Shown here: positions 35,096-64,000 of the stretch, one piece after another
Layout: each line of letters starts with the position of its first letter
How positions within the stretch are numbered: position 1 is the first letter of the stretch
Assembly (NCBI RefSeq): GCF_014836875.1
Contig: NZ_JACSQC010000001.1
Location: 496,001-560,000, forward strand
Reading direction: 5' to 3'
DNA: 64,000 nt
DNA from: Arthrobacter pullicola
GTDB lineage: Bacteria; Actinomycetota; Actinomycetes; Actinomycetales; Micrococcaceae
Made by a program: the position numbers and the translations under genes
Notes under the pieces: model-generated
The model's input: only the letters and a program-made list of their open reading frames with translations
What the model was told of the DNA's origin: nothing
The model's database searches: none

Positions 35096-35291
35096 ATTGG
35101 CTCCTTGACCGGCTGGGGGTGCGTCTGTGCAGTATCAACCGTGGTGTGCGGCTTTTGTAACCCCCGGCAGCCGGTTTTGCGGCGGGGGAGGCGGGAATCC
35201 GGAGTGCCGGTGCGGGGTCACCGGGAAGGCCGCCTGCGGGAAATTACCTCCGCGTGATCGTAGAGGATGTTGGAAATAGTAGGCTTCCGCT

Positions 35292-35990
35292 ATGGAACCC
35301 ACCGCATCAGCCCTCGGTTTTTCCCGCCGAATCCTCCGGGACGAGGTCTATGACTACATTGTTGATCTTCTCCTCAGCGGCAACTTTGAACCAGGAGCGG
35401 CGCTGAATATCGACTCGCTCTCCCGGCAGCTCGAGGTATCGCCAACCCCGATCCGTGAAGCACTGGTACAGCTTGAGCACACCGGCCTGGTGCAGCGCGT
35501 TGCCCTCAAGGGGTACCGGGTGGCACCGCCGCTGAGCCGGGGGCAGATGGAAGAACTGTTCGATGCCAGGGCGATTGTCGAGGTGGCGGCGGTCGAGCGG
35601 ACCAGTGCCGATTTGGATTCCCTGCTCCCTGCCCTGATCGAAGCCCATGAGGAGCACCGCCAGGCGGCCATACTGTTCCAGGAGGCCGATCCGGCAGAAC
35701 GTGCCGCGGGATACAGGCGCTATTTCGAGGCCGACTGGAAGTTCCACGAGACCATCCTGCGGAAATGTGGAAACCGCTACCTGCACCAGATGGCCCAGAC
35801 GGCCAGCACCCACTCGCACCGGATGCGGCAGAGTGCCACCCGCGGCTCCAACGACACGGCACTTGCCGTCACCGAGCATCAGGCGGTGCTGGACCGGCTG
35901 GCGCGGGGAGACGTGGCCGGCGCCGCCCGGGCCATGAAGGAACACATCGCCAATGCCCGGACCAGGGCCCTTACGGAAGCCGCGGACTGA
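35292..35990 (+). CDS. GntR-family (FCD subfamily) regulator of the second TTT operon
   Basis: 232 residues: a winged helix-turn-helix (IDSLSRQLEVSPTPIREALV) followed by an FCD domain with the metal-site pattern (FEADWKFHETIL, HQMAQ, EHQAVL, MKEHI). It precedes a tctCBA operon in the same orientation, as the 1317 gene does. Its stop codon lies in the first of three 13-bp tandem repeats. The likely operator is the AGATC/GATCT inverted repeat at 36119. Effector presumably the transported acid. Confidence 0.88.
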   Translation: MEPTASALGFSRRILRDEVYDYIVDLLLSGNFEPGAALNIDSLSRQLEVSPTPIREALVQLEHTGLVQRVALKGYRVAPPLSRGQMEELFDARAIVEVAAVERTSADLDSLLPALIEAHEEHRQAAILFQEADPAERAAGYRRYFEADWKFHETILRKCGNRYLHQMAQTASTHSHRMRQSATRGSNDTALAVTEHQAVLDRLARGDVAGAARAMKEHIANARTRALTEAAD

Positions 35991-36017
35991 AGCCGCGGAC
36001 TGAAGCCGCGGACTGAA
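35979..36017. repeat. Three tandem copies of a 13-bp unit at a stop codon
   Basis: GCCGCGGACTGAA occurs three times head-to-tail (35979-35991, 35992-36004, 36005-36017). The first copy contains the GntR stop codon TGA, so the duplications extend the 3' untranslated stretch without altering the protein. This looks like replication slippage. Confidence 0.9.
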
Positions 36018-36118
36018 GCCCCTGTGTGCCGCGGCTAAATGAGTCCCCCGCCTAAATAAGTCGCGCGCCTAACTCAACAGTTGCGCCCGGCCGTGACGGA
36101 TGCCACACTGTGTTTCGT

Positions 36119-36134
36119 AGATCAAATAGGATCT
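36119..36134. promoter_or_regulatory. Candidate GntR operator before tctC-2
   Basis: AGATC and GATCT are inverted arms with spacer AAATAG in a markedly AT-rich tract (36110-36150) between the regulator and the second tctC. The location suits a promoter plus repressor site. Confidence 0.4.
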
Positions 36135-36200
36135 TTTATATTTTCAAAAATCAGCCTTCCGCTGGAATGGCGACTACGCAGCTATCAAGGGAGATACGCA

Positions 36201-37172
36201 GTGTCGAGAGTTGTGAATGTGATGGGTGTCCTCCTGGCGGGAAGCCTTGCCCTCACCGCCTGTGGCGCGTCGAGCTCAAGCGGCTCCACCGAAGGAGGGG
36301 CCTACAAACCGGGCGGCAACGTCACCATGACCGTGCCTTTTGGCGCCGGTGGCGGCAGCGACCTTTCCGGGCGGGCAATCGCAGCAGGCCTGGAGAAGAT
36401 CACCGGCGTCAACATCAGCACCGAGAACAAGGAGGGCGGCTCCGGAGCAGTAGGTTACGCCGCGTTCCTGGCCAAGGCAGGCAAGGCTGATCAGCTGCTG
36501 GCCACGGAAACGGCGATGCTGGCCCTGCCGCTGACCCAGGACGTCCCCTTCACCTACGAGGACTTCACCCCGATCATGAAGCTCGGCGACGACTTCACGC
36601 TGCTGACAGTCAGCCCGGATTCCCCTTACGAAACCTGCACTGACGTCGTCAACGCCGCCAAGGACGGACGCGTTGTTGCGGCCGTCTCAGGGGCGACCAG
36701 CCTCGACCAGATTGTCTTCTCGCTGATCGAAAAGGAAACCGGCGTCGAATTTGACCGGGTTCCGTACGAATCGGGCAACGAAGTGGTTGCCGGGCTGCTG
36801 GGCGGCCAGGTGGACGTCATTTCGGTAAACCCCGGAGAAGTACTTGGCCAGTTGGAAGCCGGAACCCTCAAGCCCCTCTGCGCCATTGCGGAGAACCGCT
36901 ACGAGTTCGACTCCCTGAAGGACATTCCCACGGCCGCCGAGCAGGGTATCGATGTAGCCTTCGCCCAGTTCCGGGGGTTCATCGCACCCGGGAACATCAC
37001 CGACGAGGAAAAGCAGTTCTGGATCGACGCCGCTAAGGAATTCGAGCAGACCGACGAATATGCCGCCTACATTGAGGACAACCTCATGCAGGCCAACGCG
37101 GTCTACGGCGACGATTTCAAGGAATACCTCACCGGCAATGCTGAGGACCTGGCCAAAGTCCTCGGAGAATAA
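36201..37172 (+). CDS. tctC: TctC-type solute-binding lipoprotein (TTT system 2)
   Basis: 323 residues from the GTG at 36201, which has AGGGAG seven bases upstream and starts a short lipoprotein signal with lipobox LTAC. Family landmarks: VTMTVPFGAGGGSDLSG, INISTENKEGGSGAVGY-like segment and PTAAEQGIDVAF. It binds a carboxylate for TctAB-2. It differs from the first TctC in most positions, so the systems are not recent duplicates. An upstream in-frame ATG (36081) would bury the signal and is rejected. Confidence 0.9.
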   Translation: MSRVVNVMGVLLAGSLALTACGASSSSGSTEGGAYKPGGNVTMTVPFGAGGGSDLSGRAIAAGLEKITGVNISTENKEGGSGAVGYAAFLAKAGKADQLLATETAMLALPLTQDVPFTYEDFTPIMKLGDDFTLLTVSPDSPYETCTDVVNAAKDGRVVAAVSGATSLDQIVFSLIEKETGVEFDRVPYESGNEVVAGLLGGQVDVISVNPGEVLGQLEAGTLKPLCAIAENRYEFDSLKDIPTAAEQGIDVAFAQFRGFIAPGNITDEEKQFWIDAAKEFEQTDEYAAYIEDNLMQANAVYGDDFKEYLTGNAEDLAKVLGE

Positions 37173-37175
37173 TCC

Positions 37176-37721
37176 GTGTCAGCTGCAACCCGGTTAATTC
37201 CGAACCTTGTTATCGCCGCGCTCGGAGTGGCGGCTGCGGTCATCGCCGCCGGCTACGGCGTCATTGGCGACGACGGCCGGATCGGTCCTGGTTTCCTGCC
37301 GGCGCTCTGCGGCGTCCTGCTGGTCCTGTTCGCTGTGGTCAACTCAGTGAGTTCCCACCGGAACAGGACATCTGCCGAGGACATCGCAGAGCGTCTGGCG
37401 CTCGGGTCCGACGCCGGTGACCATGGGCTTCCCGTGGAAGAGCCGGATGAGGACGGCGTGGACATTTACGGCCGGTCCCAGCGCCAGCGCGACCGCATGC
37501 TCTGGGCCGTCGTCGGCATCATCCTGGCCACCGTCCTCCTGACCCCGGTGCTGGGGTTCATCGTGGCCTTCGCCGTCATGCTCGTTGTTATTGCCGTGGC
37601 TGTTGAGCGCCGGAAAATCCTGCCATCACTCATGGTCAGCGTCATCACGCTGGCGGTTACGTACACCATCTTTGTCGTATTGCTCCAAGTGCCGCTTCCA
37701 CAGGGCTTACTCGGAATCTAG
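37176..37721 (+). CDS. tctB: TctB-type small membrane subunit (TTT system 2)
   Basis: 181 residues, GTG start at 37176 just after the tctC stop, with GGAG in the end of tctC as ribosome site. Four hydrophobic helices are split by a long acidic loop (residues about 60-100, VEEPDEDGVDIYGRSQRQRD), typical of TctB. It joins TctA to the binding protein. Confidence 0.85.
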   Translation: MSAATRLIPNLVIAALGVAAAVIAAGYGVIGDDGRIGPGFLPALCGVLLVLFAVVNSVSSHRNRTSAEDIAERLALGSDAGDHGLPVEEPDEDGVDIYGRSQRQRDRMLWAVVGIILATVLLTPVLGFIVAFAVMLVVIAVAVERRKILPSLMVSVITLAVTYTIFVVLLQVPLPQGLLGI

Positions 37722-37730
37722 GAGACCACC

Positions 37731-39233
37731 ATGCTGGACAATCTAATCCTGGGTTTCTCGACCGCCCTTACTGTGGAAAACCTTGTTTGGTGTTTCATCG
37801 GAGTGCTGATGGGAACAGTCATCGGCCTGATGCCTGGACTCGGCTCAACAACCGGTATTGCCATTCTGATTCCGCTGACCCTTGGCATGGAGCCGGTTAC
37901 CGCGCTCATTATGCTGGCCGGTATTTACTACGGTGCCCAATACGGCGGCACCATCACCTCTGTCCTGATTTCCACTCCAGGTGAGGCCGCCAGCGTGGTG
38001 ACGACTCTGGACGGGTACCAAATGGCCCGGCGGGGCCAGGCGGGATCCGCGCTGGCGATTGCAGCGATCGGCTCCTTTATCGCAGCGATCATTTCCCTGG
38101 CCCTCCTCATGGCGCTTGCGCCGCCGTTTGCCAAGCTGGCACTCAACTTCGGGCCGGTCGAGAACCTGGCCATCATGATCCTGGGCCTGATTACGGTCGT
38201 GAGTTTCGTGGGCGGATCGATGTCCAAGGGCCTGATGATGGTGACCGCCGGGCTGCTGATCAGCACCGTCGGAATTGCGTCCGGATTCAGCACCGCCCGC
38301 TTCACTTTCGGCAACGTCAACCTCCTGGGCGGGATCCCCTTCGTGGAGGTCATGATCGGGCTGTTTGCCCTCGGGGAAGTCATGCACCAGATCCGGGTCG
38401 GCGCGGCGGCACCCATCCGGGCGCGGTTCAAGGACATGATGCTCAGCCGGCGGGACCTGACCAAATCGATGCCGTCCATCTTCCGCGGAAGCTTCATCGG
38501 GTTCATCCTGGGCTGCCTGCCGGGTGCGGGTTCGACCCTCGCCTCCTTCCTCTCCTATGGAGTGGAACGCCGGGTGTCCAAGAACAAGGACAACTTCGGA
38601 AAAGGCGCCATTGAAGGCGTTGCCTCACCGGAAAGTGCCAACAACGCAGCGGCCAACGCGAACTTCGTGCCGACCCTCGCCCTGGGCATCCCGGGCGGTG
38701 GCACCACGGCGGTGCTGCTGGGGGCCTTCACGATCTATGGCCTGCAGCCCGGACCGCTCCTCTTCGAACAGCAGCCCACCCTGGTGTGGGGACTGCTGGT
38801 CTCCTTCTTCATCGGCAACGTCATGCTGCTGGTGCTCAACCTGCCCCTCGCACCGGTCTTCGCCCAGATGCTGCGGATCCCCTACGCGTACCTTTACCCC
38901 ATCATCATCCTGACCAGCCTGGTTGGCGCCTATTCGGTGAGCAACAACATGTTCAGTGTCTGGCTCGTGGTCATCTTCGGAGTCGTGGGATTCCTCATGA
39001 AGGAGTTCGATTTCCCCATTGCGCCCTTCGTGCTCGGGCTCGTGCTCGGTCCGCTGCTGGAGAAGTCGCTGGTGCAGACGTCAGCACTGGGCCAGGGAAA
39101 CTTCATGATCATGTTCCAGAGCCCGATTTCCGTCGGCATCCTCCTGCTCGCACTGCTTCTTGCCATCGGCCCGGCAGTCCTCAGCAGGTTCCAAACAACC
39201 TCGTCCAAGCAAAAGGACCTTACGAATGCCTGA
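37731..39233 (+). CDS. tctA: TctA-type large membrane subunit (TTT system 2)
   Basis: 500 residues with the TctA repeats: GVLMGTVIGLMPGLGSTTG in the N-terminal half and GFILGCLPGAGSTLASF in the second half, plus YGGTITSVLISTPGE and GIPGGGTTAVLLGA. Ten to twelve membrane helices. It imports the substrate captured by TctC-2. The next gene starts inside its last codons (ATG 39226), consistent with coupled translation. Confidence 0.93.
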   Translation: MLDNLILGFSTALTVENLVWCFIGVLMGTVIGLMPGLGSTTGIAILIPLTLGMEPVTALIMLAGIYYGAQYGGTITSVLISTPGEAASVVTTLDGYQMARRGQAGSALAIAAIGSFIAAIISLALLMALAPPFAKLALNFGPVENLAIMILGLITVVSFVGGSMSKGLMMVTAGLLISTVGIASGFSTARFTFGNVNLLGGIPFVEVMIGLFALGEVMHQIRVGAAAPIRARFKDMMLSRRDLTKSMPSIFRGSFIGFILGCLPGAGSTLASFLSYGVERRVSKNKDNFGKGAIEGVASPESANNAAANANFVPTLALGIPGGGTTAVLLGAFTIYGLQPGPLLFEQQPTLVWGLLVSFFIGNVMLLVLNLPLAPVFAQMLRIPYAYLYPIIILTSLVGAYSVSNNMFSVWLVVIFGVVGFLMKEFDFPIAPFVLGLVLGPLLEKSLVQTSALGQGNFMIMFQSPISVGILLLALLLAIGPAVLSRFQTTSSKQKDLTNA

Positions 39234-40263
39234 TCCGCACACCCTTGCTGCCGAGGCCGCGCCTCTACCCGCGCGGTCGGCGGCAGACACCGCTCCCTAT
39301 GACAGCGCATCGTGGCCGATCGCCGCGGCGCTCCTGCAGTATCCCGGACGCAAACCGGACGGTTCGCTCGTCCAGGATGCCCCCGCCAACGAGTGGGTCG
39401 ACACGCTTTCGCAGGTGAGCGCCGTCGGATTCAACGCCGTTGACCTGACGGACAGCTGGCTAAAGCCCGGAGATCTCTCCGCAGGCCGGCTCGCCGAGCT
39501 GAACACGGCATTGAGCCTTTCCGGTGTCCAGGCTCCGGTGCTGTCGATCGTGCGCACCAGTGTGCTGGACCGGGAACACGGAGACGCGAACTTCGCCTAC
39601 ACCATGCGTTCCATCGCCGCAGCGGCGGAAATTGGAGCAGGCACCCTGTCCCTGGGCCTGCACCAGCAGCTGACCGCGGAGCAGCAGGAACGGCTGTGGT
39701 TCTGGACCGCGCAGGGCGCCGGGGACCCTCCCGGTGATCCGGAAACCTGGGACCTGGCCGTGAAGCGCTTCCGGGCGATCGGGCAGGAAGCCGCCCGGTA
39801 CAACATGCAGGTCTCCCTCGAGCTGTATGAGGACACTTACCTGGGAACTGCGGACAGCGCCGTCCGGCTTATTGAGGACATCGGCTTGGCCAACGTGGGC
39901 ATTAATCCGGACATTGGAAACCTCGTACGGCTGCACCGTCCGATTGAGAGCTGGCAGGAAATCCTCCACAAGACGCTGCCGTATACCAACTACTGGCAGG
40001 TCAAGAACTACTTCCGGGACGAAAACCCCGAAACCGGAGCCATCACTTCGCTGCCGGCGCCCCTTGAACTCGGCTTTATCAATTACCGGCAGGCGGTTCA
40101 GCAGGCCGTGGCTGCCGGTTTCAACGGTGTTTTCTGCTGCGAACACTACGGCGGGGACGGCCTCGGCATCAGCGCCATGAATCAACGCTACCTTCGGACG
40201 CTTTTGAAATCCGCCCTTACCCCGGCATGCAGCAGCGCCCAGTTTCAGGAGACAATCCCATGA
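39226..40263 (+). CDS. Sugar-phosphate isomerase/epimerase-type TIM barrel
   Basis: 345 residues of the AP-endonuclease-2-like/xylose isomerase-like TIM barrel family. Metal-site positions are suggested by SLELYEDTYLG (Glu), NVGINPDIGN (Asp), YWQVKNYFRDENP and FCCEHYGGDGLG (Glu). Related enzymes isomerise or epimerise ketoses, hydroxypyruvate or 2-oxo-tetronates (OtnI). Start ATG 39226 overlaps tctA; the stop overlaps the kinase start by ATGA. A four-carbon substrate is suggested by the neighbours, not shown. Confidence 0.75.
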   Translation: MPDPHTLAAEAAPLPARSAADTAPYDSASWPIAAALLQYPGRKPDGSLVQDAPANEWVDTLSQVSAVGFNAVDLTDSWLKPGDLSAGRLAELNTALSLSGVQAPVLSIVRTSVLDREHGDANFAYTMRSIAAAAEIGAGTLSLGLHQQLTAEQQERLWFWTAQGAGDPPGDPETWDLAVKRFRAIGQEAARYNMQVSLELYEDTYLGTADSAVRLIEDIGLANVGINPDIGNLVRLHRPIESWQEILHKTLPYTNYWQVKNYFRDENPETGAITSLPAPLELGFINYRQAVQQAVAAGFNGVFCCEHYGGDGLGISAMNQRYLRTLLKSALTPACSSAQFQETIP

Positions 40264-41981
40264 CAGCAATGCAGCTGGACGCCTCAACTTTCGCCGCGGA
40301 CATGCTGGACGGATTTACGGCTGCCAACCCGCAGTACGTCAAAGCTGTGGACGGCGGGGTGATCCGCTCCACGGTCATCCCTGACGGCCAGGCCGCACTG
40401 GTCATCGGCGGCGGCTCCGGCCACTATCCTGCGTTCGCAGGACTGGTGGGGCCGGGCCTGGCCGCCGGCGCTGTGTGCGGCAACATCTTTGCCTCACCTT
40501 CGGCCTCCCAGATTTGCCGGGTGGCCCGCGCGGTCCACCGCGGCGGGGGAGTCCTCCTCGGCTACGGCAACTATGCGGGTGACGTGCTCCATTTCGGACT
40601 GGCGCGGGAACAGCTGCGAGCCTCCGGAATCGATGCCCGCACCATTGCAGTGACCGATGACATTGCCAGCGCACCTGCCGATCAGCTCCACAAGCGCCGC
40701 GGAATTGCCGGAGACCTCACCGTCTTCAAGGTGGCCGGAGCTGCGGCGGAAGCGGGTTACAGCCTCGATGCCGTGGAGCAGGTCGCCCGGCGGGCCAACC
40801 ACCGGACCCGCTCGCTCGGAGTGGCTTTCTCCGGGTGCACCCTTCCGGGGGCGGATAGACCGCTGTTCTCGGTTCCGGACGGGATGATGGCTGTTGGAAT
40901 GGGCATCCATGGCGAGCCCGGTATTTCCGAGCTGCCGCTGCCCACCCCGGATGAACTCGCGAAGGTGCTCGTCCACGCCCTGCTCAATGACCGGCCGGAG
41001 AACGCCGGGGAGCGTGTGGTCGTCCTGCTGAACGGGCTGGGAACCGTCAAGTACGACGAGCTTTTTGTCCTCTACAGCAAGGTCCGGCTCCTGCTTGAGG
41101 GCGAGGGCCTGACGATTGTGGAACCGGAATGCGGTGAGCTCGTCACCAGCCTGGACATGTCCGGCGTCTCCCTCACCCTTCTCTGGCTGGACGAAGAGCT
41201 TGAATCCCTCTGGGCCGCACCGGCCGGCAGCCCCGCCTTCCGCAAGGGCGCGGTGAGTGCTGAACCCGATCTGTCTTCCCCCGATGAGGAAGCAGCCGGG
41301 CCTGCCGGGCCGCCTGAAGGCAGCAGCCATACCGCCGCCAGCGTCCTCGCCGTCGAGCTCTTTGAGGCGGTGGACCGCATGCTGACCCAGGCGGAATCCG
41401 CTCTGGGCGATCTGGACGCGATAGCGGGCGACGGCGATCACGGCATCGGCATGGCCCGCGGAGCGCGGGCCGCCGCGCAGGCAGCACGCCGCCGGGCGGA
41501 GAGCGGCAGCGGAATCGGCGCCGTTACCCTCGCAGCAGGGGAAGCCTGGGCCGAGGAAGCGGGGGGAACCTCAGGTGCGCTGTGGGGGGCAGCCATCTGT
41601 GCCGTTTCCTCGACCCTTCTCCGTTCGGCGGACCTATCCTCTGCCACAGCCGTGCAGGCTGTTGACGCGGCCCTTGCCGCGATGCAGTCACTTGGCAAGG
41701 CGGAGCCGGGGGACAAGACCATGGTCGACTCCTTTGTGCCGTTTGCCGTGACCCTGCGCCAGGAAATGGCGGCCGGCAAAACCCTGGAGCACGCCTGGCA
41801 GGCCGCCGCCGCCGCTGCCACCTCGGCAGCAGCCGCTACCGCCGAACTCCGGCCCAACCTCGGCAGGGCCAGGCCCCTGGCTGAGCGAAGCCTTGGCCAT
41901 CCCGACCCCGGAGCGGTGTCGCTGGCCATGATCGCCAGCACCATCGGAGAGAACATCAAGAAAGAGGACATCCGTGGATAA
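40260..41981 (+). CDS. Fused DhaK-DhaL-type kinase (tetrulose or dihydroxyacetone)
   Basis: 573 residues: an N-terminal DAK1 domain ([12 protein letters not shown]; the covalent-substrate His in [12 protein letters not shown]) and a C-terminal ATP-binding DAK2 domain ([29 protein letters not shown]). It is ATP-dependent, unlike PTS-driven DhaKLM. The loop GHYPAF differs from the canonical GHEPAH of dihydroxyacetone kinases, as expected for relatives that act on erythrulose (LerK/DerK of mycobacteria). Neighbouring RpiB- and TIM-like isomerases match that pathway. Start ATG 40260. Confidence 0.87.
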
Positions 41982-42441
41982 GAAGTTCCGAATCGTCATT
42001 GGATCCGATGAGGCCGGGTTTGACTACAAAGAGGCGCTGAAAGCCGATCTGATGAAAAACCCCCTGGTGGGGGACGTTGTCGACGTGGGCGTTACCGGGC
42101 AAGAGTCCACTGACTACCCCCACGTTGCGGTGGAAGCCGCCCGCCTGATTGCTGCCGGAAAAGCAGACCGCGGACTGCTGATCTGCGGTACCGGCCTCGG
42201 CGTGGCAATAGCCGCCAACAAGGTCAAAGGCATCCGTGCGGTGACCGCGCACGACAGTTACTCGGTGGAGCGGTCAGTCCTGAGCAACGATGCGCAGATC
42301 CTGACCATGGGCCAGCGCGTCATTGGCCTTGAACTTGCCCGCCGCCTGGCAGCCGAGTGGCTGACCTACAGCTTCAACCCCCAGTCCGCGTCCGCCAGCA
42401 AGGTCGCGGCGATCCGCTCATATGAGGAAGTCACAGCATGA
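41974..42441 (+). CDS. RpiB/LacAB-family sugar-phosphate isomerase
   Basis: 155 residues, GTG start at 41974 overlapping the kinase end. The RpiB active-site Cys is Cys71 in [16 protein letters not shown]. The first motif is GSDEAGF, where pentose-phosphate RpiB proteins have GSDHAGF, so a catalytic-pocket His is replaced by Glu12-region Glu. RpiB homologues in erythritol and erythrulose pathways isomerise D-erythrulose 4-phosphate. That fits this operon better than ribose 5-phosphate. Confidence 0.85.
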
Positions 42442-43445
42442 ACACCACTGAACTGCTCCCCCGCATCGCGGTAACACTCGGCGACCCGGCCGGCGTCGGC
42501 CCTGAGCTTGCCGTCAGGCTGCTGGCGCGGCCGGAGACCACTCGCATGGCGGAGGTCTACATTCTTGCCGACGCCGCAGAGGTGGAGGCCGCTGCGCAGG
42601 CAGCCGGGGTAGTTGTTCCGCTGAGCGCGGCGCCCCGGCCCGGCTACGCCGTCCTGCTGGACGATGCGTCGGCGCCGGCCGAAGCCATCCCGGTCCAGCA
42701 GGTCTCCCAGGCCGCGGGGGAACGTACGCTTCATCAGCTGAAGAGGGCCGTCGCCCTGGCCAATGCCGGCGAAGTTGAAGCTATTCTTTTCACGCCCCTG
42801 AACAAAACAAGCCTCAAGCTTGGCGGCATGAATGAAGAGGACGAGCTGCGCTGGTTCGCACGGGAACTTGACTACGAAGGTACGACCAGCGAACTCAACG
42901 TCCTTCCCGGCCTGTGGACAGCCCGGGTCACCTCACACATTCCGGTCAGCGAGATCGCGGAACGCATTACCGTCGGGAATGTACTGAACACGATCCGCCT
43001 CCTGCACTCCGTCCTGGTTGACTCAGGGCTGGAGAGCCCCCGCATTGCTGTCTGTGCCCTGAACCCCCACGCCGGAGAAAACGGAAACTTTGGCCGTGAG
43101 GAAATCGATCAGATTGCGCCCGGAATCGCTGCCGCCCGCGAGGACGGGATGGACGCTTCCGGTCCGTTCCCCTCCGATACCGTTTTCCTCGCTGCGAAGC
43201 GGGGGGACTTCGACGGTGTTGTTACGATGTACCACGATCAGGGGCAGATCGCCATGAAGCTGATCGGATTCGACCGCGGGGTAACCATCCAGGGCGGGCT
43301 GCCCATCGTGATCGCCACGCCGGCGCACGGCACCGCATTCGACATCGTCGGGAAGAATGCCGCCAACCTCGGGGCAACTGAACACGCCTTCGAACTCGCA
43401 GTGAAGGTCGGCTCCCGGATCCGCGCAGCGAAAGCGGCCGTCTGA
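42438..43445 (+). CDS. PdxA-like 4-phospho-tetronate dehydrogenase
   Basis: 335 residues of the PdxA family, with the three metal histidines in [18 protein letters not shown] and [14 protein letters not shown]-terminal [12 protein letters not shown] and [15 protein letters not shown]. PdxA makes pyridoxal precursors, but PdxA2 paralogues in catabolic operons oxidise and decarboxylate 4-phospho-D-threonate or -erythronate to dihydroxyacetone phosphate. The operon context supports the latter. The start overlaps the RpiB-like gene (ATGA at 42438). Confidence 0.85.
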
Positions 43446-43446
43446 C

Positions 43447-44220
43447 ATGACCGGCAGGACCGTTACCGTCGGTATCAGCACCAAAATGTACCTCGGGTAC
43501 GCGTCCTCCAAAGCGTGGCTGGAAGCGGTGATGGCCGTTGCCAGGGAATCGGAGGCCGTTTCCGCTGGGACGGTGAAGCTGTTCATCGCGCCGTCCTTCC
43601 CCGTGCTGGAGACGGCGCTGGGGCTCGCCGGCGGAACACCGGTCCAGATCGCTGCGCAAAACGCATCGGAGCAGGACTCCGGCCCGCTGACTGGAGAGGT
43701 CAGCCCAGCCTTTTTGGCAGAAATGGGCGTCTCGCTGGTGGAGCTGGGCCATGCCGAACGGCGGGAGCTCTTCGGTGAAGACGACGCTGTGGTGGCTGCG
43801 AAAAGTGCAGCCGCCCAGCGGAACAACCTGCAGCCGCTGCTGTGCATTGGGGAAAAGAGCCGGGTTGCCCCGGAGGAGGCAGCCCGGCTCAGCTACGCAC
43901 AGTTCGCCTCGGCACACGTGGACCCGGACGGACCAACGCCCGTGGTTGCCTATGAGCCACTCTGGGCCATCGGCGCCACGGAGCCCGCCGAGCCGGCGTA
44001 TGTGCGCGCAGTTGCGGCCCGGCTTCGGGAGCAGCTTCCCGGGAATGCGACGCTGCTGTACGGCGGAAGCGCCGGACCGGGCCTGCTCCCGCTTCTCTAC
44101 CCCCACGTGGACGGACTGTTCCTTGGGCGTTTTGCCCACGATCCGGGCAACCTCGCACTCATCCTCGAGGAGGCGGCCGTGCTCCTGGCGGCGGAGGAAC
44201 GGCCACACGCCCGGGCCTAG
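43447..44220 (+). CDS. Triosephosphate isomerase-like enzyme
   Basis: 257 residues of the TIM family. Catalytic Lys13, His102 (LVELGHAERR) and Glu170 (VAYEPLWAIG) and the phosphate loop GGSAGP are present. The canonical NWKMN around Lys13 is STKMY, so the conserved Asn is lost; this is seen in TIM-like enzymes with other substrates such as L-erythrulose 1-phosphate isomerases. In this operon it probably handles a tetrulose phosphate or the DHAP made by the PdxA-like enzyme. The stop overlaps the convergent SMR gene by 4 bp. Confidence 0.85.
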   Translation: MTGRTVTVGISTKMYLGYASSKAWLEAVMAVARESEAVSAGTVKLFIAPSFPVLETALGLAGGTPVQIAAQNASEQDSGPLTGEVSPAFLAEMGVSLVELGHAERRELFGEDDAVVAAKSAAAQRNNLQPLLCIGEKSRVAPEEAARLSYAQFASAHVDPDGPTPVVAYEPLWAIGATEPAEPAYVRAVAARLREQLPGNATLLYGGSAGPGLLPLLYPHVDGLFLGRFAHDPGNLALILEEAAVLLAAEERPHARA

Positions 44221-44567
44221 GGGGTTTCCTGTTTCTCCGCGGCAGGGACGGCCTTGTCCACGAACTTCAGTCCGATGACGCAGCCGATGATCCCGGCGAG
44301 GAACAGGACCTTGAGCACCCCGGGTTCCTCGGTGCCGGTGGCCATGGCCCAGGCCACGGTGAGGACGGCGCCGAGCCCGGTCCACACAGCGTAGGCAGTA
44401 CTGATGGGGATGAACTTCATGGCGTAGCCAAGCCCTGCCATGGACAGCGCCGCAGCGGCGGCGAAGATCACCGAGGGCAGCAGGACGGTGAACCCGTTCG
44501 ACGCCTCCAGTGCGGTGGCCCAGACCGCTTCGAGGACGGCGCTGAGAATCAGGACAATCCAAGCCAT
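44217..44567 (-). CDS. SMR-family transporter, second subunit
   Basis: 116 residues with four membrane helices and the SMR signature MAWIVLILSAVLEAVWATAL, carrying the essential Glu13, and STAYAVWTGLGAVLTV. The tail (VDKAVPAAEKQETP) is longer than in its partner. It is 2 bp downstream of the other SMR gene; paired SMR genes often make heterodimers. The upstream guanidine-III riboswitch marks the pair as guanidinium exporters (Gdx type) rather than general drug pumps. Confidence 0.9.
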   Translation of the reverse strand: MAWIVLILSAVLEAVWATALEASNGFTVLLPSVIFAAAAALSMAGLGYAMKFIPISTAYAVWTGLGAVLTVAWAMATGTEEPGVLKVLFLAGIIGCVIGLKFVDKAVPAAEKQETP

Positions 44568-57891: not shown

Positions 57892-57991
57892 ATCTGCAAC
57901 AGCGCCCTGGCCGGGACGGATATTCCGCCGCGGCTCCGGCCATGCGGCAACCCCTGTTTCCCGGGCCGCCCCGGGGCTAGACTCGCGGACC

Positions 57992-58348
57992 ATGGCACAC
58001 GAACTCGTGGCACTTGAAACCGAGGGCTGGCACGCCCTTTCCACCGGACCGGAAGAGGCCACCGCGTTTTATGACCGGGTGCTGGCACGGGAGCCCGTGA
58101 TTATGCTGACCAACGGGCTGCGGATTACCGACCGGAGCCAGATCATCGCGTCCATGGGCGGTCCGCCGTGGACCAGTTTCGAGATTATCGAACCGCTGGA
58201 GACCTATCTGGGGCCCGACGTCGGATTCCTCACCTACAAGGTGCGGGCGGACCGGGACGGCACGCCGTACACCGCGCTGCTCAGCAGCGTCTATGCCAGG
58301 GAGGACGGCGAGTGGAAGCTGGCCCTGCACCAGCACACGCCGTACTGA
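57992..58348 (+). CDS. DUF4440/SnoaL-like protein
   Basis: 118 residues with an NTF2-like fold: LVALETEGWHALSTGPEEATAFYDRVL at the start and the ending AREDGEWKLALHQHTPY. Function unknown; members degrade or bind small molecules. Its last ten codons reappear downstream at 59072 and, less exactly, at 60346, which makes this gene's 3' end the likely target site of two insertions. Confidence 0.85.
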   Translation: MAHELVALETEGWHALSTGPEEATAFYDRVLAREPVIMLTNGLRITDRSQIIASMGGPPWTSFEIIEPLETYLGPDVGFLTYKVRADRDGTPYTALLSSVYAREDGEWKLALHQHTPY

Positions 58349-58359
58349 GGTTGAGCCTT

Positions 58360-58956
58360 CTAGTGCTGCTCCGCGGGCTGGGCATGAAGACTCTCATCGG
58401 CAGGACCGAAAGAGGCCCGGGAGAAGGAAACGGTGAGTCCCGCCCGTTCCGGTGCTGCGACGTAGAGGCCGGCCCTGGTGGAACCGGTGATGTCCAGATG
58501 CGCCACCCGGATGGTCCGCCAGGGCGCCTTTTCACTGCGTGCTCGAAGGACCACCGAGTTCCCCGTCCAGCTGGCACGGATGGTTACGTTGGTGTGGGCC
58601 CATTCCGGCACGGGGCTGAGGGACCAGTCGGAGTATTCACGCGTCACGACGGCACCCACATGAGGTTCACCGTCGGTGATTTCGACGCCCGCCTTGATCC
58701 AGTTGGACTCATCGGTGCGGATCATGAGGCCGGCTTGGTCATAAAGACTGTCGTAGGAGGTTTTGAACGTGACTTCCAGGGCGCCGTCTCCAGTGACGGG
58801 AGCAAGGAGGGCGTGCCCTGAATCCCGCTGGAAACCGTAGTACGTCTTTTCCCAGTAGTCGCTGCCCTGGACTGCCTCAACCAGGAGATTGCCGCCGTCG
58901 GCTTCGCTGCTGACAGGCGGATGCGTCCATGTGGCCTGGTCCAAAAACTCCTGCAT
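58360..58956 (-). CDS. DUF1349 (concanavalin-like) protein
   Basis: 198 residues from the ATG at 58956, with a GGCAGG site upstream. The DUF1349 pattern is plain: DYWEKTYYGFQRDSGHALLAP, YDQAGLMIRTDESNWIKAGVE, DWSLSPVPEW and RAGLYVAAPERAGLTVSFS. The fold is a beta-sandwich like GH16 lectin-type domains; some relatives bind sugars. It lies between two copies of the DUF4440 3' end and has somewhat lower GC than the flanks. Confidence 0.87.
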   Translation of the reverse strand: MQEFLDQATWTHPPVSSEADGGNLLVEAVQGSDYWEKTYYGFQRDSGHALLAPVTGDGALEVTFKTSYDSLYDQAGLMIRTDESNWIKAGVEITDGEPHVGAVVTREYSDWSLSPVPEWAHTNVTIRASWTGNSVVLRARSEKAPWRTIRVAHLDITGSTRAGLYVAAPERAGLTVSFSRASFGPADESLHAQPAEQH

Positions 58957-59071
58957 AGTCCTGCCCTGTCCCCTCGGTGTGGTTCCTCTAGGTGTTGATC
59001 TGTACATCAAAGTATCGATGACAAGGTTCGGCAGCATGAAGAGTCAACCAGCGTGACACTCCCATTTTTAT

Positions 59072-59104
59072 AAACTCGCGCTGCACCAGCACACGCCGTA
59101 TTGA
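59072..59104 (+). pseudogene. Relic of a DUF4440-like 3' end
   Basis: The reading KLALHQHTPY and stop repeats the last ten codons of the gene ending at 58348. Four codons differ only at synonymous third positions (AAA, CTC, GCG, TAT), and the central 20 bp (59081-59100) are identical to 58325-58344. The synonymous drift shows that it was once coding. Upstream of 59072 the similarity ends abruptly in AT-rich sequence. Confidence 0.75.
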
Positions 59105-59181
59105 AATCCGGTCAAAAGGTGCGGGGATTTGAGTCCGCGTAGAAGGTGGACGGCGGAATCCGCGCCGTCCACCTCATCACG

Positions 59182-60273
59182 TCAGAGGTAGCTGTGGACA
59201 CTCTTTCGAAGCGCTTCGGCATGGTTGTAGATCTCGTCCAGCGAGTTGATCGGCATCCGGGTTTCCACCTTGTCTTCGTCGAAGATACCCACGTACTTCT
59301 GGCTTCGGTTGAAGTGAAGCCGGGCTATGGGCTTCCGGTTATTGTCATCAAGAAGCACAGCGAAGTACGTCTTTGCATCTCGCTGTGTTACCCGGGAAGG
59401 GGCTACTTCGCTACAGACAATTGCGCGCACGATTTGGAAACCTTCGAGTTCCTCAAGGGTCGTCTCGATTCCGTCATTGTCCGCTAGATCCTTCTCCACC
59501 TCGGGTTCGCTCGTCAGCGCGGCAGCTGACTGTTCTGCATTAGCAGTCTGAAGTGTGTCCGTCCCCAAAGCCGTTTTCAGCCTGCCATTTACCTGGTCGT
59601 TGAGGAACTGCTTAGCGGCTTTGATGACTAGGGGAGTGAACTGCTCTCGAACCTTTTGCGTGACCGCTCCCTCATATACGCGAGAGGTGAAGTACTTGAT
59701 CCAATCGTCATCCGGCTCTTTGAACTGGGCGGCAATGATGCGCTTAATTTGGCCGATGTACTTCAACTCACCCGCCGCGTTGATGACCGAATCGAGGTCG
59801 AAGACATCTTTGGACAGCTTCTGCAATTCCGGTATAAGAGTCTCATCGATGTCGTTGAGGTCAAGTACGAGGAAAGGCTTCGCATCCATCCGGTTGGGTG
59901 CATCCAGATCAGTGAAGAACTGGTAGTGCTCACCGTTGGTCAGGATGGCGATTCGCGCGTTGGTTACGGCGAAGTAGCGGTAGAGCTGAGAAGCGTGCTC
60001 TATCTTGACGGGTTCCTTCGATTTCTTGCACTCGATAAGAATCTGAACTTCACCGTTATGCACAATGGCGTAGTCGACTTTTTCGCCTTTTTTTACGCCA
60101 ACATCGGCGGTGAACTCGGGGACTACCTCTAAGGGGTTGAACACGTCGTAGCCAAGAATCGTGGATATGAACGGCATAATGAACGCGTTCTTCGTTGCCT
60201 CTTCAGTCTCGATTGAGGCCCGCTGTTGCCGTACTTTTGCGGCCAATGCGAGCAGGCGTTCTGCGAAATCCAT
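59182..60273 (-). CDS. Stand-alone HsdR-N-type PD-(D/E)xK nuclease-fold protein
   Basis: 363 residues matching the N-terminal nuclease domain of type I restriction subunits: ATKNAFIMPFISTILGYDVF, Asp67 (KVDYAIV), Glu81-Cys-Lys83 (IECKK), and the conserved QLYRYFAVTNARIAILTNG. There is no helicase, and no HsdM or HsdS nearby. The C-terminal 150 residues include VRAIVCSEVAPSRV and LHFNRSQKYVGIFD, seen in similar phage and defence proteins. GC is about 50 percent, well below the neighbours, so it is an import. Possibly a single-gene defence factor. Confidence 0.82.
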   Translation of the reverse strand: MDFAERLLALAAKVRQQRASIETEEATKNAFIMPFISTILGYDVFNPLEVVPEFTADVGVKKGEKVDYAIVHNGEVQILIECKKSKEPVKIEHASQLYRYFAVTNARIAILTNGEHYQFFTDLDAPNRMDAKPFLVLDLNDIDETLIPELQKLSKDVFDLDSVINAAGELKYIGQIKRIIAAQFKEPDDDWIKYFTSRVYEGAVTQKVREQFTPLVIKAAKQFLNDQVNGRLKTALGTDTLQTANAEQSAAALTSEPEVEKDLADNDGIETTLEELEGFQIVRAIVCSEVAPSRVTQRDAKTYFAVLLDDNNRKPIARLHFNRSQKYVGIFDEDKVETRMPINSLDEIYNHAEALRKSVHSYL

Positions 60274-60345
60274 GGTTCCCCCATTTTTTGAAAGCTTTTT
60301 GAAAGTCTATCCCTGCGGTCTGACACTTGCATGTTCATAACCCGG

Positions 60346-60369
60346 CACCTTCACCAGGGCCCGTACTGA
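60346..60369 (+). pseudogene. Second, weaker relic of a DUF4440-like 3' end
   Basis: The reading HLHQGPY and stop resembles the LHQHTPY ending of the DUF4440 gene. At DNA level CACCAG, then CCGTACTGAGATACGG aligns with CCGTATTGAAATCCGG at 59095-59110 (three mismatches). It marks the far end of the low-GC nuclease gene. A GGCCGC/GCGGCC hairpin follows at 60375. Confidence 0.4.
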
Positions 60370-60374
60370 GATAC

Positions 60375-60392
60375 GGCCGCCCTACAGCGGCC
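60375..60392. terminator. Hairpin between relic and IclR gene
   Basis: GGCCGC and GCGGCC form a perfect 6-bp stem with a 6-base loop, lying between converging transcription from the left and the IclR stop at 60410. Confidence 0.5.
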
Positions 60393-60409
60393 CGGAACGG
60401 TGAGCCCGA

Positions 60410-61276
60410 TCACAGCGGGTGATCCTTTCGGTGCTGCTCCAGGAACTCCATGGAGTTCCTGGAGGAATGCACCAAAGCGCGGTATTTGCCGCCGCCCGCT
60501 GACTCGGGGCCGCCCGGCGGCAGATACGCGGCCTGCAGCGCTGCCGAAATCTGGCGGGCGGCGTCCTTGAGTAGACGGACCGTGGGAAGCGCCGGAGCGG
60601 AGTCATTCGGAACCACCACACTGATGGCGGCAACAACTGATTCCTTCAATCCGTAGACCGGAACGGCAATTCCCCGGGCAGCGGGATGAATGAAGCCGCT
60701 GCCCACTGCGTGGCCCTGTTCGCGGATCTGGGCGAGCAAACGCCGGAGGTGAGCCGGGCTCTGGACCGTATCTTCGGTGTATTTCACCAGCCCGGAGGTC
60801 AGAACCTCGGCCTGGAAACTGCCGGGAGCGTGTGCCAGCAGAACCAGCCCGCTGGAGGAGGCATGAAGCGGCAGCCGGCCGCCGATCAGGGTCACGTTGA
60901 CGACGGCATTCCGGGTCGACAGCCGTTCCAGGAACAGCACTTCATGGCCCTGCAGGATGCCCAGCTGGGCGTGCTGCCGAACAGAAAAATGGATGTCCTG
61001 CAGGTAGGGCATGGCTATTTCCCGCAGACCCAGGGCGCCCGGCGTGCGGCAGGCGATCTCCCACAGGCGCACACCTATGCGGTAGGTCTTATCCCGTTCC
61101 CGTTCCAGCAGGCCAAACTGCTCAAGTTCCGCCACCACCCGGTGGGTCGTTGCCAGCGGCAGGCCGCTCCGCTGCGACAACTGGGACACGGTGAGAAAGG
61201 CCGAGTCCACGTCGAAGGTACCCAGAATCTGCATAATCCGGCTGAGCGCGGACCTCCCGGCAGAAGCGTTGGCCAT
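60410..61276 (-). CDS. IclR-family regulator of the P450 cluster
   Basis: 288 residues: winged helix (LTVSQLSQRSGLPLATTHRVV, with a break) then an IclR effector domain (GHEVLFLERLSTRNAVVNV, LHASSSGLVLLAHA, GIAVPVYGLKESVVAAISV). Start ATG 61276 with AAAGGAAA. It is divergent from the binding-protein/P450 genes and most likely regulates them; IclR proteins often sense aromatic acids. Confidence 0.88.
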   Translation of the reverse strand: MANASAGRSALSRIMQILGTFDVDSAFLTVSQLSQRSGLPLATTHRVVAELEQFGLLERERDKTYRIGVRLWEIACRTPGALGLREIAMPYLQDIHFSVRQHAQLGILQGHEVLFLERLSTRNAVVNVTLIGGRLPLHASSSGLVLLAHAPGSFQAEVLTSGLVKYTEDTVQSPAHLRRLLAQIREQGHAVGSGFIHPAARGIAVPVYGLKESVVAAISVVVPNDSAPALPTVRLLKDAARQISAALQAAYLPPGGPESAGGGKYRALVHSSRNSMEFLEQHRKDHPL

Positions 61277-61417
61277 ATTTTCCTTTCAACGGAAACGAGC
61301 TGGAGCCTGAATTGTGACACATCCCATACTCAGTGCAACGGAGTCGGGCCGGTGAAGATCCGATTCCAGCCAGAGCTTTGCATCCGGCGCAATGAGGCGC
61401 CCTTTGGGAGGAAAACC

Positions 61418-62368
61418 ATGGATCGACGCAGAAATCACCGGCGTTACTTCGCACTCACGGCTGTGGCTGGCGCCGCTCTGGGGCTGGCTGCCTGCGGTTC
61501 CTCGGGGCAGGCTGCGGCCGGGGAAGCCGTGCAGGTGGGCTACTTCCCCCTGGTGCATACCTCCACCGCCGTCAATGCCGAGGAAAACGGCCTGTTCGAA
61601 GCTGAGGGCCTGGACGTGGAGCTGGTTCAGACGCAGGGCGGGGCCGCTGCGATTCCCACTCTGATCTCGGGCGACATCGATGTGGCCTATGCCAACTACA
61701 CCTCGGCGCTGCTGGCGGTGAAGCAGGGGCTGCCGGTGCGCTTCATTTCCGGGAACGACGTCGGTGCCGCTGACCACGGTATCTTCGTCGCGGAGGATTC
61801 AGGCATCGAAACGGTGGAGGATCTGGCCGGCAAGACGTTCGCGGTGAACAATCTCCAGAACATCGGTTCAGTTGCGGTCTATGCGCTGCTTGAGGACGCC
61901 GGCCTGGATCCTTCGGCCGTGGACCTGATCGAGATGCCGTACCCGGATATGCAGGCCGCTTTGGAACGCGGGGCGGTGGACGCCATCTGGCAGGTTGAGC
62001 CGTTCCAGGCCAGTGCGGCCGCCGCGGGGTTCGTCAAACTCTCCGACCTGTTCACCGGTCCGGTCGACGGAATGCCGGTGGCCGGATGGATCACAACGGA
62101 GACGTTCCTGCAGGAAAATCCCGAGGCAGTCGAAGCGTTCCGCAAGGCCATCGCGGCCTCAGGGGAGGAACTCCAGGACAACCGTGCGCGGCTGGTCGAG
62201 CTGGTCCCAACGTTTACCAAGGTTCCCGCGGAGGTCGTGGAGCAAATCGAAATGCCCAGGTTCGAGGGCAGGCTCGACGGCGGCCAGCTGCAGAAAACGG
62301 CAGACCTGATGCACAAATACAACATCATCGACGCCGCATTGGACACCCGTCCACTGCTCGCCGAGTAG
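61418..62368 (+). CDS. NMT1/SsuA-type solute-binding lipoprotein
   Basis: 316 residues from the ATG at 61418 with GGGAGGAAAA upstream. A lipoprotein signal ends in LAAC. The domain pattern (VQVGYFPLVHTSTAVNAEENG, GLDVELVQTQGGAAAIPTLI, GDIDVAYANYTSALLAVKQG) is that of nitrate/sulfonate/taurine-type binding proteins, which also capture aromatic acids. No permease or ATPase follows at once; they may lie beyond 64000. Ten bases separate it from the P450 gene. Confidence 0.88.
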   Translation: MDRRRNHRRYFALTAVAGAALGLAACGSSGQAAAGEAVQVGYFPLVHTSTAVNAEENGLFEAEGLDVELVQTQGGAAAIPTLISGDIDVAYANYTSALLAVKQGLPVRFISGNDVGAADHGIFVAEDSGIETVEDLAGKTFAVNNLQNIGSVAVYALLEDAGLDPSAVDLIEMPYPDMQAALERGAVDAIWQVEPFQASAAAAGFVKLSDLFTGPVDGMPVAGWITTETFLQENPEAVEAFRKAIAASGEELQDNRARLVELVPTFTKVPAEVVEQIEMPRFEGRLDGGQLQKTADLMHKYNIIDAALDTRPLLAE

Positions 62369-62378
62369 GAGGAAAGCC

Positions 62379-63584
62379 ATGACCACCACGACTGAATTCG
62401 AGATCCCCGTTCTTGACCTGGACCCGTTCGCCGATGACTTTCTGGCCGATCCGTACGAGGCCCACGTCCAGCTGCGCGAATCCGGACCCGTGACCTGGCT
62501 GAACCGTTATCAGGTCTGGGCCGTTGCCCGCCACGACGAGGTCTCCCAGGTCTTCGCGGACCATGAAACGTTTATTTCCTCCGCCGGCGTCGGCATCACG
62601 GATTTCCGCAAAGACAAACCGTGGCGGGCACCAAGCCTGCTGCTGGAGGCCGATCCGCCGGAGCACACCCGGGCGCGGCATGTTGTCACCAGCATTCTCA
62701 ACCCCAAATTCCTGCGCGAGCTCAAGGCCGGTTTCCAGGAACGGGCGGAGCACGTGGCGGAACGGGTTGCGGCACTCGGCGACATTGACGGAGTCAAGGA
62801 CCTGGCCGAGGCGTACCCGCTTGAAGTTTTCCCGGACTTTGTGGGGCTCCCCAAGGAGGGCCGGGAGAATCTGCTGCCCTACGGCTCCATGGTCTTTAAT
62901 ACCTTCGGACCCCGCAACGGGCATTTCGAAAAAGCCATGGAAAAGGGCTCGCAGGCAGCCGGCTGGGTGATGGAACAGTGCCAACCCGGTGCGCTCCAGG
63001 GGGACGGGCTGGGGAACCGGATCCACGCCGCCGCTGCAGAGGCCGGCTACGCCGCCGAGGACTCCGCCAGGCTGCTGCGCTCCTTCCTTTCAGCCGGCGT
63101 GGACACCACCGTTCACGGGATCGGCAACGCCCTGCTCTGCCTTGCCCAACATCCGGAGCAGTACCGGCTGCTGCACCATGACCCGTCGCTGGCCCGCGCC
63201 GCATTCGAAGAGACGATCCGGTACGAATCACCGGTCCAAACCTTCTTCCGTACGACGTCCCGCGAGACTGAACTTTCCGGCACCAGAATTCCCGAAGGCG
63301 CCAAAATCCTGATGTTTATTGCCGCTGCTAACCGGGATCCCCGCCGATGGGAGAACCCGGAAGACTTTGACATCACCCGCAAAACCATGGGCCACGTTGG
63401 CTTCGGGTTCGGCATCCACGCCTGCCTGGGCCAGATGCTCGCCCGGCTGGAGGGTGAATGCATCCTCTCCGCACTGGCCCGGCGCGTGCAGAAGATCGAG
63501 ATCATCGGAGCGCCCGTGCAGCAACTCAACAACACATTGCGCGGACTGGATTCACTGCCGCTTCGCCTCACCCCGTCCGCCTGA
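62379..63584 (+). CDS. CYP199-like cytochrome P450
   Basis: 401 residues. I-helix AGVDTT, K-helix EETIRYES, FRTTSRETELSG, NRDPRRWENPEDFDITRK, and the haem loop GFGFGIHACLGQMLARLEGE with the proximal Cys. The C-terminal third closely follows CYP199A-type enzymes (ending NNTLRGLDSLPLRLTP), which O-demethylate or hydroxylate para-substituted benzoates such as 4-methoxybenzoate. It needs the ferredoxin encoded next. The ATG lies behind AGGAGGAAAG. Exact substrate unproven. Confidence 0.92.
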   Translation: MTTTTEFEIPVLDLDPFADDFLADPYEAHVQLRESGPVTWLNRYQVWAVARHDEVSQVFADHETFISSAGVGITDFRKDKPWRAPSLLLEADPPEHTRARHVVTSILNPKFLRELKAGFQERAEHVAERVAALGDIDGVKDLAEAYPLEVFPDFVGLPKEGRENLLPYGSMVFNTFGPRNGHFEKAMEKGSQAAGWVMEQCQPGALQGDGLGNRIHAAAAEAGYAAEDSARLLRSFLSAGVDTTVHGIGNALLCLAQHPEQYRLLHHDPSLARAAFEETIRYESPVQTFFRTTSRETELSGTRIPEGAKILMFIAAANRDPRRWENPEDFDITRKTMGHVGFGFGIHACLGQMLARLEGECILSALARRVQKIEIIGAPVQQLNNTLRGLDSLPLRLTPSA

Positions 63585-63615
63585 ACCGCGTCCGTCCAAA
63601 CCACCGGAGCCCACC

Positions 63616-63930
63616 ATGCCAAAAGTAACCTTTGTCCAGCCTGACGGCACTGAAATGATTGTCGACGCCGGAGCCGGCACCAGCGTTATGCGCACGGCGG
63701 TTTCCTCCGGAGTTCCCGGAATTGTTGCCGAATGCGGCGGCAGCGCGATGTGCGCCACCTGCCACGTCTACGTTGATCCCGGTGACCGGGCGGCGCTGCC
63801 GGAAATGCTCGCTGTGGAGGACGAGATGCTGGACTGCGCGGCAGCCGAGCGGGAAGAAGGCAGCCGCCTCTCCTGCCAGCTCCCCGTAGCCACGGATATC
63901 CGGGTCCGCATTCCGGAAACGCAGGTTTAG
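63616..63930 (+). CDS. [2Fe-2S] ferredoxin, electron donor to the P450
   Basis: 104 residues of the putidaredoxin/adrenodoxin type. Cluster ligands are C39, C45 and C48 (ECGGSAMCATCH) and a fourth Cys in RLSCQLPV. The GIVAECGG and VDPGDRAALPEM blocks are typical. It passes electrons from the reductase at 63931 to the P450. ATG 63616. Confidence 0.93.
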   Translation: MPKVTFVQPDGTEMIVDAGAGTSVMRTAVSSGVPGIVAECGGSAMCATCHVYVDPGDRAALPEMLAVEDEMLDCAAAEREEGSRLSCQLPVATDIRVRIPETQV

Positions 63931-64000
63931 ATGATGGGAACAGCCAACTCCGCTGGTGCCACTCTGATTGTCGGAAACTGCCAGGCCGGTGTGCAGCTGG
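63931..64000 (+). CDS. Start of a ferredoxin reductase-like flavoprotein (partial)
   Basis: 23 residues are visible (MMGTANSAGATLIVGNCQAG, continuing). The LIVGNCQAG block is the beginning of an FAD Rossmann motif, as in putidaredoxin reductase-like enzymes, and the position after the ferredoxin gene supports this. The start could be either of the two adjacent ATGs. The rest is beyond the window. Confidence 0.65.
   Translation, partial: MMGTANSAGATLIVGNCQAGVQL

What the first reader, a model, noticed from the sequence alone, without database searches (positions are those of the whole stretch)
58300..60400. Serial single-gene modules bounded by repeated copies of a gene's 3' end
The last ten codons of the DUF4440-like gene (ending 58348) recur at 59072-59104 with a 20-bp identical core and only synonymous changes, and a weaker copy with a shared post-stop tail occurs at 60346-60376. 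Between copies one and two is a single DUF1349 gene; between two and three a single low-GC HsdR-N-type gene. Reconstitution of a gene 3' end at each junction is what site-specific integration or accretive recombination at a gene end produces, yet no integrase is present. This may be a small-cargo hotspot.
Basis: partly seen in the sequence, partly recalled or inferred. Interest (0 to 1): 0.75.

Follow-up and report, generated by a model that had tools for sequence, protein, structure and literature searches.

The report
Variable gene slot with recombination scar
A gap between two genes of an Arthrobacter-type bacterium has been filled with different genes in related species, and here two fillings sit side by side with a 33-base scrap of the neighbouring gene between them; this is best read as ordinary gene turnover with a readable scar rather than a new mobile element.

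Summary
The core observation is real: the last 33 bases of the DUF4440 gene (58316-58348) recur at 59072-59104 with 29 matches and only silent differences, and a genome search finds just these two. The third copy (60346-60376) is not established. In eight related genomes, this one included, DUF4440 is followed by a HAD hydrolase gene, and the slot between them varies: empty (G025), HsdR-N gene (G005), HNH gene (G022), an unassigned gene (G016), an IclR-P450 block (G023), DUF1349 plus that block (G024, G017), and DUF1349 plus HsdR-N plus the block here. Against the closest relative, 1405 bp here replace 8 bp. In A. gandavensis HsdR-N directly follows DUF4440, tail to tail, as it follows copy 2 here. 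Copy 2 is therefore best read as the tip of a second DUF4440 allele that stood beside HsdR-N before two versions of the slot were joined. Site-specific integration is not supported: no recombinase found, second gene end in 1 of 29 genus genomes, gene-end copies not significantly commoner beside HsdR-N than beside control genes. The region has 6-12 comparable breaks per relative.

The parts
57992..58348 (+). DUF4440 gene (118 aa), intact; left border of the variable slot; its end 58316-58348 is copy 1
   Evidence: PF14534 E 3.6e-9; full-length orthologues at 77-95% aa identity in 9 of 28 other genus genomes
58360..59037 (-). DUF1349 gene; shared at this place with G024 (A. gallicola) and G017 (A. 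luteolus); the longest ATG/GTG/TTG frame in G024 starts later (198 aa)
   Evidence: PF07081 E 3.2e-58; 96% and 86% aa identity; G024 frame
59007..59071 (.). 65 bp of unknown origin between the end of homology to G024 and copy 2; GC 44.6%
59072..59104 (+). copy 2: tip of a second DUF4440 allele (KLALHQHTPY and stop), not part of an intact gene
   Evidence: 29/33 to copy 1, 30/33 to the G017 allele, differences silent
59182..60273 (-). stand-alone HSDR_N gene (363 aa)
   Evidence: PF04313 E 2.3e-13; D67, E81, K83 and Q96 the same in 63 of 63 aligned sequences
59007..60411 (.). segment present here and replaced by 8 bp in the closest relative G024; right edge uncertain by about 30 bp because a CCCTACAGCGG motif recurs there
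60346..60376 (+). claimed third copy; not established
60410..61276 (-). IclR-type regulator gene, first gene of a block (binding protein, P450) that itself lies between DUF4440 and HAD
   Evidence: PF01614 E 2.2e-29; orthologues in 3 of 28 other genus genomes (G024, G017, G023), all beside this slot

Best explanation
The interval between the DUF4440 gene and a convergent HAD hydrolase gene (about 1.2 kb beyond the window's right end) is a variable slot that relatives fill with different genes. In this genome two versions have been joined: one with DUF4440 followed by DUF1349 and the IclR-P450 block (as in A. gallicola and A. luteolus) and one with DUF4440 followed directly by HsdR-N (as in A. 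gandavensis). The 33-base copy 2 is the leftover tip of the DUF4440 allele that stood next to HsdR-N. Shown: the variability, both arrangements in relatives, a near-exact site without the insert in G024, and that copy 2 is a different, silently diverged allele. Inferred: that the join came from DNA of a relative, with a non-homologous join at the gene tip and perhaps a homologous one elsewhere, without a recombinase; and which version was the recipient. The HsdR-N protein is most likely a stand-alone nuclease spread as a single gene, possibly for phage defence (inferred).
For: Slot contents between DUF4440 and HAD in 8 genomes: none in G025; HsdR-N in G005; HNH in G022; an unassigned 183-aa gene in G016; IclR-P450 block in G023; DUF1349 plus block in G024 and G017; DUF1349, HsdR-N and block here. 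G001 and G021 have an ABM-domain gene next to DUF4440 and no HAD match in the fetched stretch. Window 59007-60411 is replaced by 8 bp in G024; identity in 150-bp bins is 90.7-98.2% to the left (57900-59006) and 93.3-98.0% to the right (60412-64000). In G005 37 bp separate the DUF4440 stop from the HsdR-N stop, here 77 bp separate copy 2's stop from it, same order and orientation. Against the 7 alleles that end in TPY, copy 2 differs only at silent positions or in the kind of stop codon. HsdR-N is patchy and changes place: 88 of 395 family genomes at E up to 1e-60, 22 of 32 genera, one match each; 35 different 5' surroundings in 63 loci and 28 different 3' surroundings in 61; relatives in 46 plasmid records (25 over at least 80% of the protein) and 18 phage records.
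Against: No genome with this DUF4440 tip next to this HsdR-N allele was found in 29 genus genomes. The 65 bp before copy 2 and the 138 bp right of HsdR-N have no convincing long match there (best for the latter 22 of 22 bases in G013). There is no step in identity to G024 at the insert edges, so no imported homologous tract is visible and the homologous half of the proposed event is not shown. HsdR-N of G000 and G005 agree at only 38.7% of four-fold sites, the lowest of 18 frames compared, so G005 itself is not a recent source. The third copy, if real, would favour the accretion rival.
Confidence: 0.68

Rival explanations
1. Site-specific or accretive integration at the DUF4440 3' end: each cargo enters at the gene tip, restores the gene with its own copy, and pushes the old tip to its far side.
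For: Order gene, cargo, displaced tip, cargo fits; the copies have the same orientation and intact stops. Successive fillings here lie on the same side of DUF4440. A weak third copy lies at the expected place.
Against: No recombinase among the frames of the interval scanned with Pfam. DUF1349 in G024 and G017 and the fillings of G005, G022 and G016 show no far-side tip (by eye; pattern). In G005 against the empty G025 the filling starts after the DUF4440 stop without a second tip. Third copy not established.
Confidence: 0.08
2. Ancestral retention: DUF4440 followed by HsdR-N was the older order here, DUF1349 with a new DUF4440 end was recombined in leaving the old tip as copy 2, and G024 and G017 lost HsdR-N.
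For: HsdR-N of G000 and G005 are at least as diverged as other genes of the pair (four-fold identity 38.7% against 47.4-65.5% for 17 other frames) and both lie next to a DUF4440 end in the same slot.
Against: Needs losses in G024 and G017, and copy 2 shows no non-silent change although it would be an old remnant.
Confidence: 0.18
3. Local duplication of the resident gene tip unrelated to HsdR-N.
For: Copies lie only 756 bp apart.
Against: Copy 2 has 3 differences to the G017 allele and 4 to the resident one, all silent, which drift of a dead copy would not readily give; it also stands where A. gandavensis has DUF4440 relative to HsdR-N.
Confidence: 0.06

Closest known systems
Hotspots of gene turnover without mobility genes (Oliveira et al. 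2017, PMC5635113; passages seen; author name recalled)
   Same: Conserved border genes with changing content and no mobility gene found; the paper proposes double homologous recombination at flanking core genes
   Different: DUF4440 is intact in 10 of 29 genus genomes, so the left border is not a core gene; the number of breaks is not visibly higher here than along the region
Homology-facilitated illegitimate recombination (PMC3240628; abstract and outline seen)
   Same: One homologous and one illegitimate join could leave a stray piece of a neighbouring gene
   Different: The homologous join is not demonstrated here
Islands integrated at gene 3' ends by site-specific recombinases (recalled, no call)
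   Same: Repeated gene tip in the same orientation
   Different: No recombinase found, no tip at the other fillings examined
[quoted passage not shown] two passages seen)
   Same: Similar size (about 1.04 kb); present in one of two compared strains, listed opposite a gene without similarity; role called unclear
   Different: Not compared by sequence here

Membership tests
Site-specific integrated element at a gene 3' end | integrase or other recombinase in the insert | tested here: not met
   DUF1349 and HSDR_N by Pfam; 8 further overlapping frames of the interval gave no Pfam family at E 0.001
Site-specific integrated element at a gene 3' end | same core sequence at both ends of each insert | tested here: not met
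   Two gene tips in 1 of 29 genus genomes; none seen by eye at the far junctions of G024, G017, G005, G022, G016
Site-specific integrated element at a gene 3' end | empty site equals one core copy | tested here: inconclusive
   G025 has one tip and no filling, but the G005 filling starts after the stop codon
Hotspot without mobility genes | same border genes, changing content | tested here: met
   DUF4440 and HAD in 8 genomes with 7 different contents
Hotspot without mobility genes | turnover higher than elsewhere | tested here: inconclusive
   Breaks of 300 bp or more along the aligned window: 6 (G024), 8 (G023), 12 (G005), 10 (G025), 11 (G022); the slot is one of them in G024, G023 and G005, and the G025 and G022 chains end at DUF4440. 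Only 5 relatives and one region; content diversity per slot was not scored
Homology-facilitated illegitimate recombination scar | one homologous and one non-homologous end | tested here: inconclusive
   Non-homologous join seen; no homologous tract visible against G024
HSDR_N nuclease | Pfam HSDR_N above cutoff and D...ExK residues | tested here: met
   PF04313 50.9 bits, cutoff 25.1; D67, E81, K83 in 63 of 63; meaning of the motif recalled; activity not tested
Type I restriction-modification system | full HsdR with HsdM and HsdS alongside | tested here: not met
   363-aa protein matching HSDR_N only; neighbours DUF1349 and IclR

The most novel reading that the evidence does not exclude
The end of the DUF4440 gene is a recurrent entry point for small cargo that travels with the donor's own copy of the gene tip, so that host recombination at a short gene-end homology gives a gene cassette system without transposase or integrase; copy 3 would be the oldest displaced tip.
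Probability: 0.07. Interest if true: 0.55.

Novelty: new member of a known kind. Interest (0 to 1): 0.25.

Why it matters
It is a small, readable example of how genes change places between related bacteria without a visible mobile element, with the tip of a second allele left as evidence. It also shows a stand-alone HsdR-N nuclease as a gene that changes place often in this family, a modest lead for phage-defence work.

Tried and rejected
Third copy: local alignment against background stretches; left as unproven. A 29-base likeness between the DUF4440/DUF1349 end and the IclR end (58344-58372 and 60412-60440, 76%) was considered as a sign of IclR-end duplication; set aside as probably chance because unrelated pairs of similar length and likeness stand in the same list.

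General rule that HsdR-N arrives with gene fragments. Any direct repeat within 500 bp: 21 of 63 HsdR-N loci against 65 of 391 control genes (Fisher p 0.003); copies on both sides: 11 of 63 against 40 of 391 (p 0.13). Some of the 21 look like dispersed repeats or repeated domains, which I did not sort formally. A gene-end test that allows any reading frame gave 3 of 63 (L170, L179, window) against 10 of 391 (p 0.40), but by their positions L170 and L179 pass it in frames other than the gene's own. An in-frame version gave 2 of 63 (L220, window) against 4 of 394 (p 0.19); L170, judged a gene-end copy by eye, fails it. So the rule is not supported for gene ends. The 63 loci are the 60 plus window, G005 and G009, out of 88 matching genomes; the 25 weakest matches were not fetched. 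A first pass used 30 loci.

The earlier idea of two different right-hand borders was dropped; the odds were shifted slightly (best explanation 0.70 to 0.68, retention rival 0.20 to 0.18, local duplication 0.05 to 0.06), none of it forced by a number.

Gap control used 80-kb stretches of 5 relatives; G017, G016, G001 and G021 were not included. Solved-structure search of HsdR-N: no match at E 0.01. PADLOC: one weak type IIG hit, E 1.4e-6; NCBIfam: none for HsdR-N. No structure prediction was made. Paper searches (no paper; 7 listed, none on the point by title and abstract start) did not help.

Full report
The window lies in a 3.62-Mb assembly (15 contigs) of a genus that, by equal contig lengths, contains Arthrobacter gallicola (G024), A. 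luteolus (G017), A. sp. Edens01 (G016), A. gandavensis (G005), A. sp. APC 3897 (G021) and A. koreensis (G025). The reported repeat is real: 58316-58348 and 59072-59104 agree at 29 of 33 bases with a 20-base identical core. The core with up to two mismatches occurs only at these two places in the assembly. The four differences are silent third-position changes. The third copy is weak: 46 of 1776 background stretches score as well with the 33-base end, 17 of 1776 with the tail, and 54 to 1511 of 4952 depending on the allele used. I do not rely on it.

Comparison across the genus settles most of the question. Full-length DUF4440 orthologues occur in 9 of 28 other genus genomes (the other genus genomes have only matches below 40% identity, or none). 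In 8 genomes, counting this one, a HAD hydrolase gene follows further right, convergent with DUF4440 (in this genome at G000:C7:561229-561912, beyond the window). Between them lie: nothing (G025), HsdR-N (G005), an HNH gene (G022), an unassigned 183-aa gene (G016), the IclR-binding protein-P450 block (G023), DUF1349 plus that block (G024, G017), and DUF1349, HsdR-N and the block here. G001 and G021 have an ABM-domain gene next to DUF4440 and no HAD match in the stretch fetched. Against G024 the window has 1405 bp (59007-60411) in place of 8 bp; 150-bp bins are 90.7-98.2% identical to the left and 93.3-98.0% to the right, with no step at the edges.

What copy 2 is follows from G005. There the DUF4440 stop is followed, tail to tail and after 37 bp, by an HsdR-N gene 91% identical in protein. 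Here copy 2's stop is followed, tail to tail and after 77 bp, by HsdR-N. Copy 2 has 3 silent differences to the G017 allele and 4 to the resident one, and none but silent or stop-codon differences to the 7 alleles ending in TPY. I read it as the tip of the DUF4440 allele that belonged with HsdR-N, left when a DUF4440-HsdR-N version and a DUF4440-DUF1349 version of the slot were joined. Which was the recipient is open. HsdR-N of G000 and G005 agree at 38.7% of four-fold sites, the lowest of 18 frames compared (47.4-65.5% for the others). Its lower GC3 (0.657 against 0.70-0.87 for six neighbours) may account for part of this, but it speaks against a recent exchange between these two lineages.

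Site-specific integration is not supported. No recombinase was found among the frames of the interval. Two gene tips exist in 1 of 29 genus genomes. G004 carries a lone tip, but as a decayed gene with codons 36-48 fused to 109-118. In G005, against the empty G025 site, the filling begins after the DUF4440 stop with no second tip beyond it (by eye). For contrast, about 0.3 kb upstream of DUF4440 in G022 an 11.5-kb element with a recombinase-like 469-aa protein (judged by eye, not searched) splits the luciferase-like gene.

The slot does not stand out in number of breaks. Along the same window there are 6 breaks of at least 300 bp against G024, 8 against G023, 12 against G005, 10 against G025 and 11 against G022; one near 35108-44250 is present in all five. 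The DUF4440 slot is one of them in G024, G023 and G005; the G025 and G022 chains end at DUF4440.

The HsdR-N gene itself changes place often. It is found in 88 of 395 family genomes drawn, in 22 of 32 genera, with one match each at E up to 1e-60. By clustering of 1.5-kb flanks it has 35 different 5' surroundings in 63 loci and 28 different 3' surroundings in 61. Relatives lie in 46 plasmid records (25 over at least 80% of the protein) and 18 phage records. In the genus it occurs in 3 of 29 genomes: here and in G005 in the DUF4440-HAD slot, and in G009, which lacks a DUF4440 match, between an alpha/beta hydrolase and a gene that by likeness is the ABM-domain gene of G001. D67, E81, K83 and Q96 are the same in 63 of 63 aligned sequences, as expected of a working nuclease (motif meaning recalled). 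In L170 the last 64 codons of the neighbouring gene recur next to HsdR-N (194 bp, 92%), and in L179 482 bp of a neighbour lie on its other side, so similar scars exist. They are not significantly commoner than at control genes: 3 of 63 against 10 of 391 in any frame, 2 of 63 against 4 of 394 in frame. Any direct repeat is commoner, 21 of 63 against 65 of 391, p 0.003, which I note as an unexplained result of mixed make-up.

Literature: hotspots without mobility genes, explained by recombination in flanking genes, are described (PMC5635113, passages), and joining by one homologous and one illegitimate end is described (PMC3240628, abstract). A Campylobacter study notes a stand-alone HsdR-N protein in one of two strains, role unclear (PMC8713573, passages). 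I therefore file this as a new example of a known kind.

Noticed in passing
G022 C3 about 463630-475120 (L156): An 11.5-kb insertion with a recombinase-like 469-aa protein (by eye) splits the luciferase-like monooxygenase gene beside DUF4440; its borders overlap by 7 bases in the alignment.
   Followed up: partly
G004 C1 about 3479977-3480045 (L065): DUF4440 survives only as codons 36-48 fused to 109-118, apparently an internal deletion.
   Followed up: yes
60437-60464: A perfect 28-base palindrome (two 14-base arms, no spacer) inside the IclR 3' coding end, also present in G024, about 26 bases from the insertion edge.
   Followed up: no
35108-44250: The largest variable stretch of the window: about 9 kb here, 15 bp to 3.1 kb of other content in five relatives.
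   Followed up: no
L170 8317-8884 (G211): A 194-bp extra copy of a gene's 3' end at 92% identity stands between that gene and HsdR-N, a similar-looking scar in another genus.
   Followed up: partly
59007-59071: 65 bp of 44.6% GC with no convincing match in 29 genus genomes; it extends the DUF1349 reading frame at its start.
   Followed up: partly
63 HsdR-N loci (window, L040, L066): Direct repeats of any kind lie near HsdR-N about twice as often as near control genes (21 of 63 against 65 of 391); cause not worked out.
   Followed up: partly
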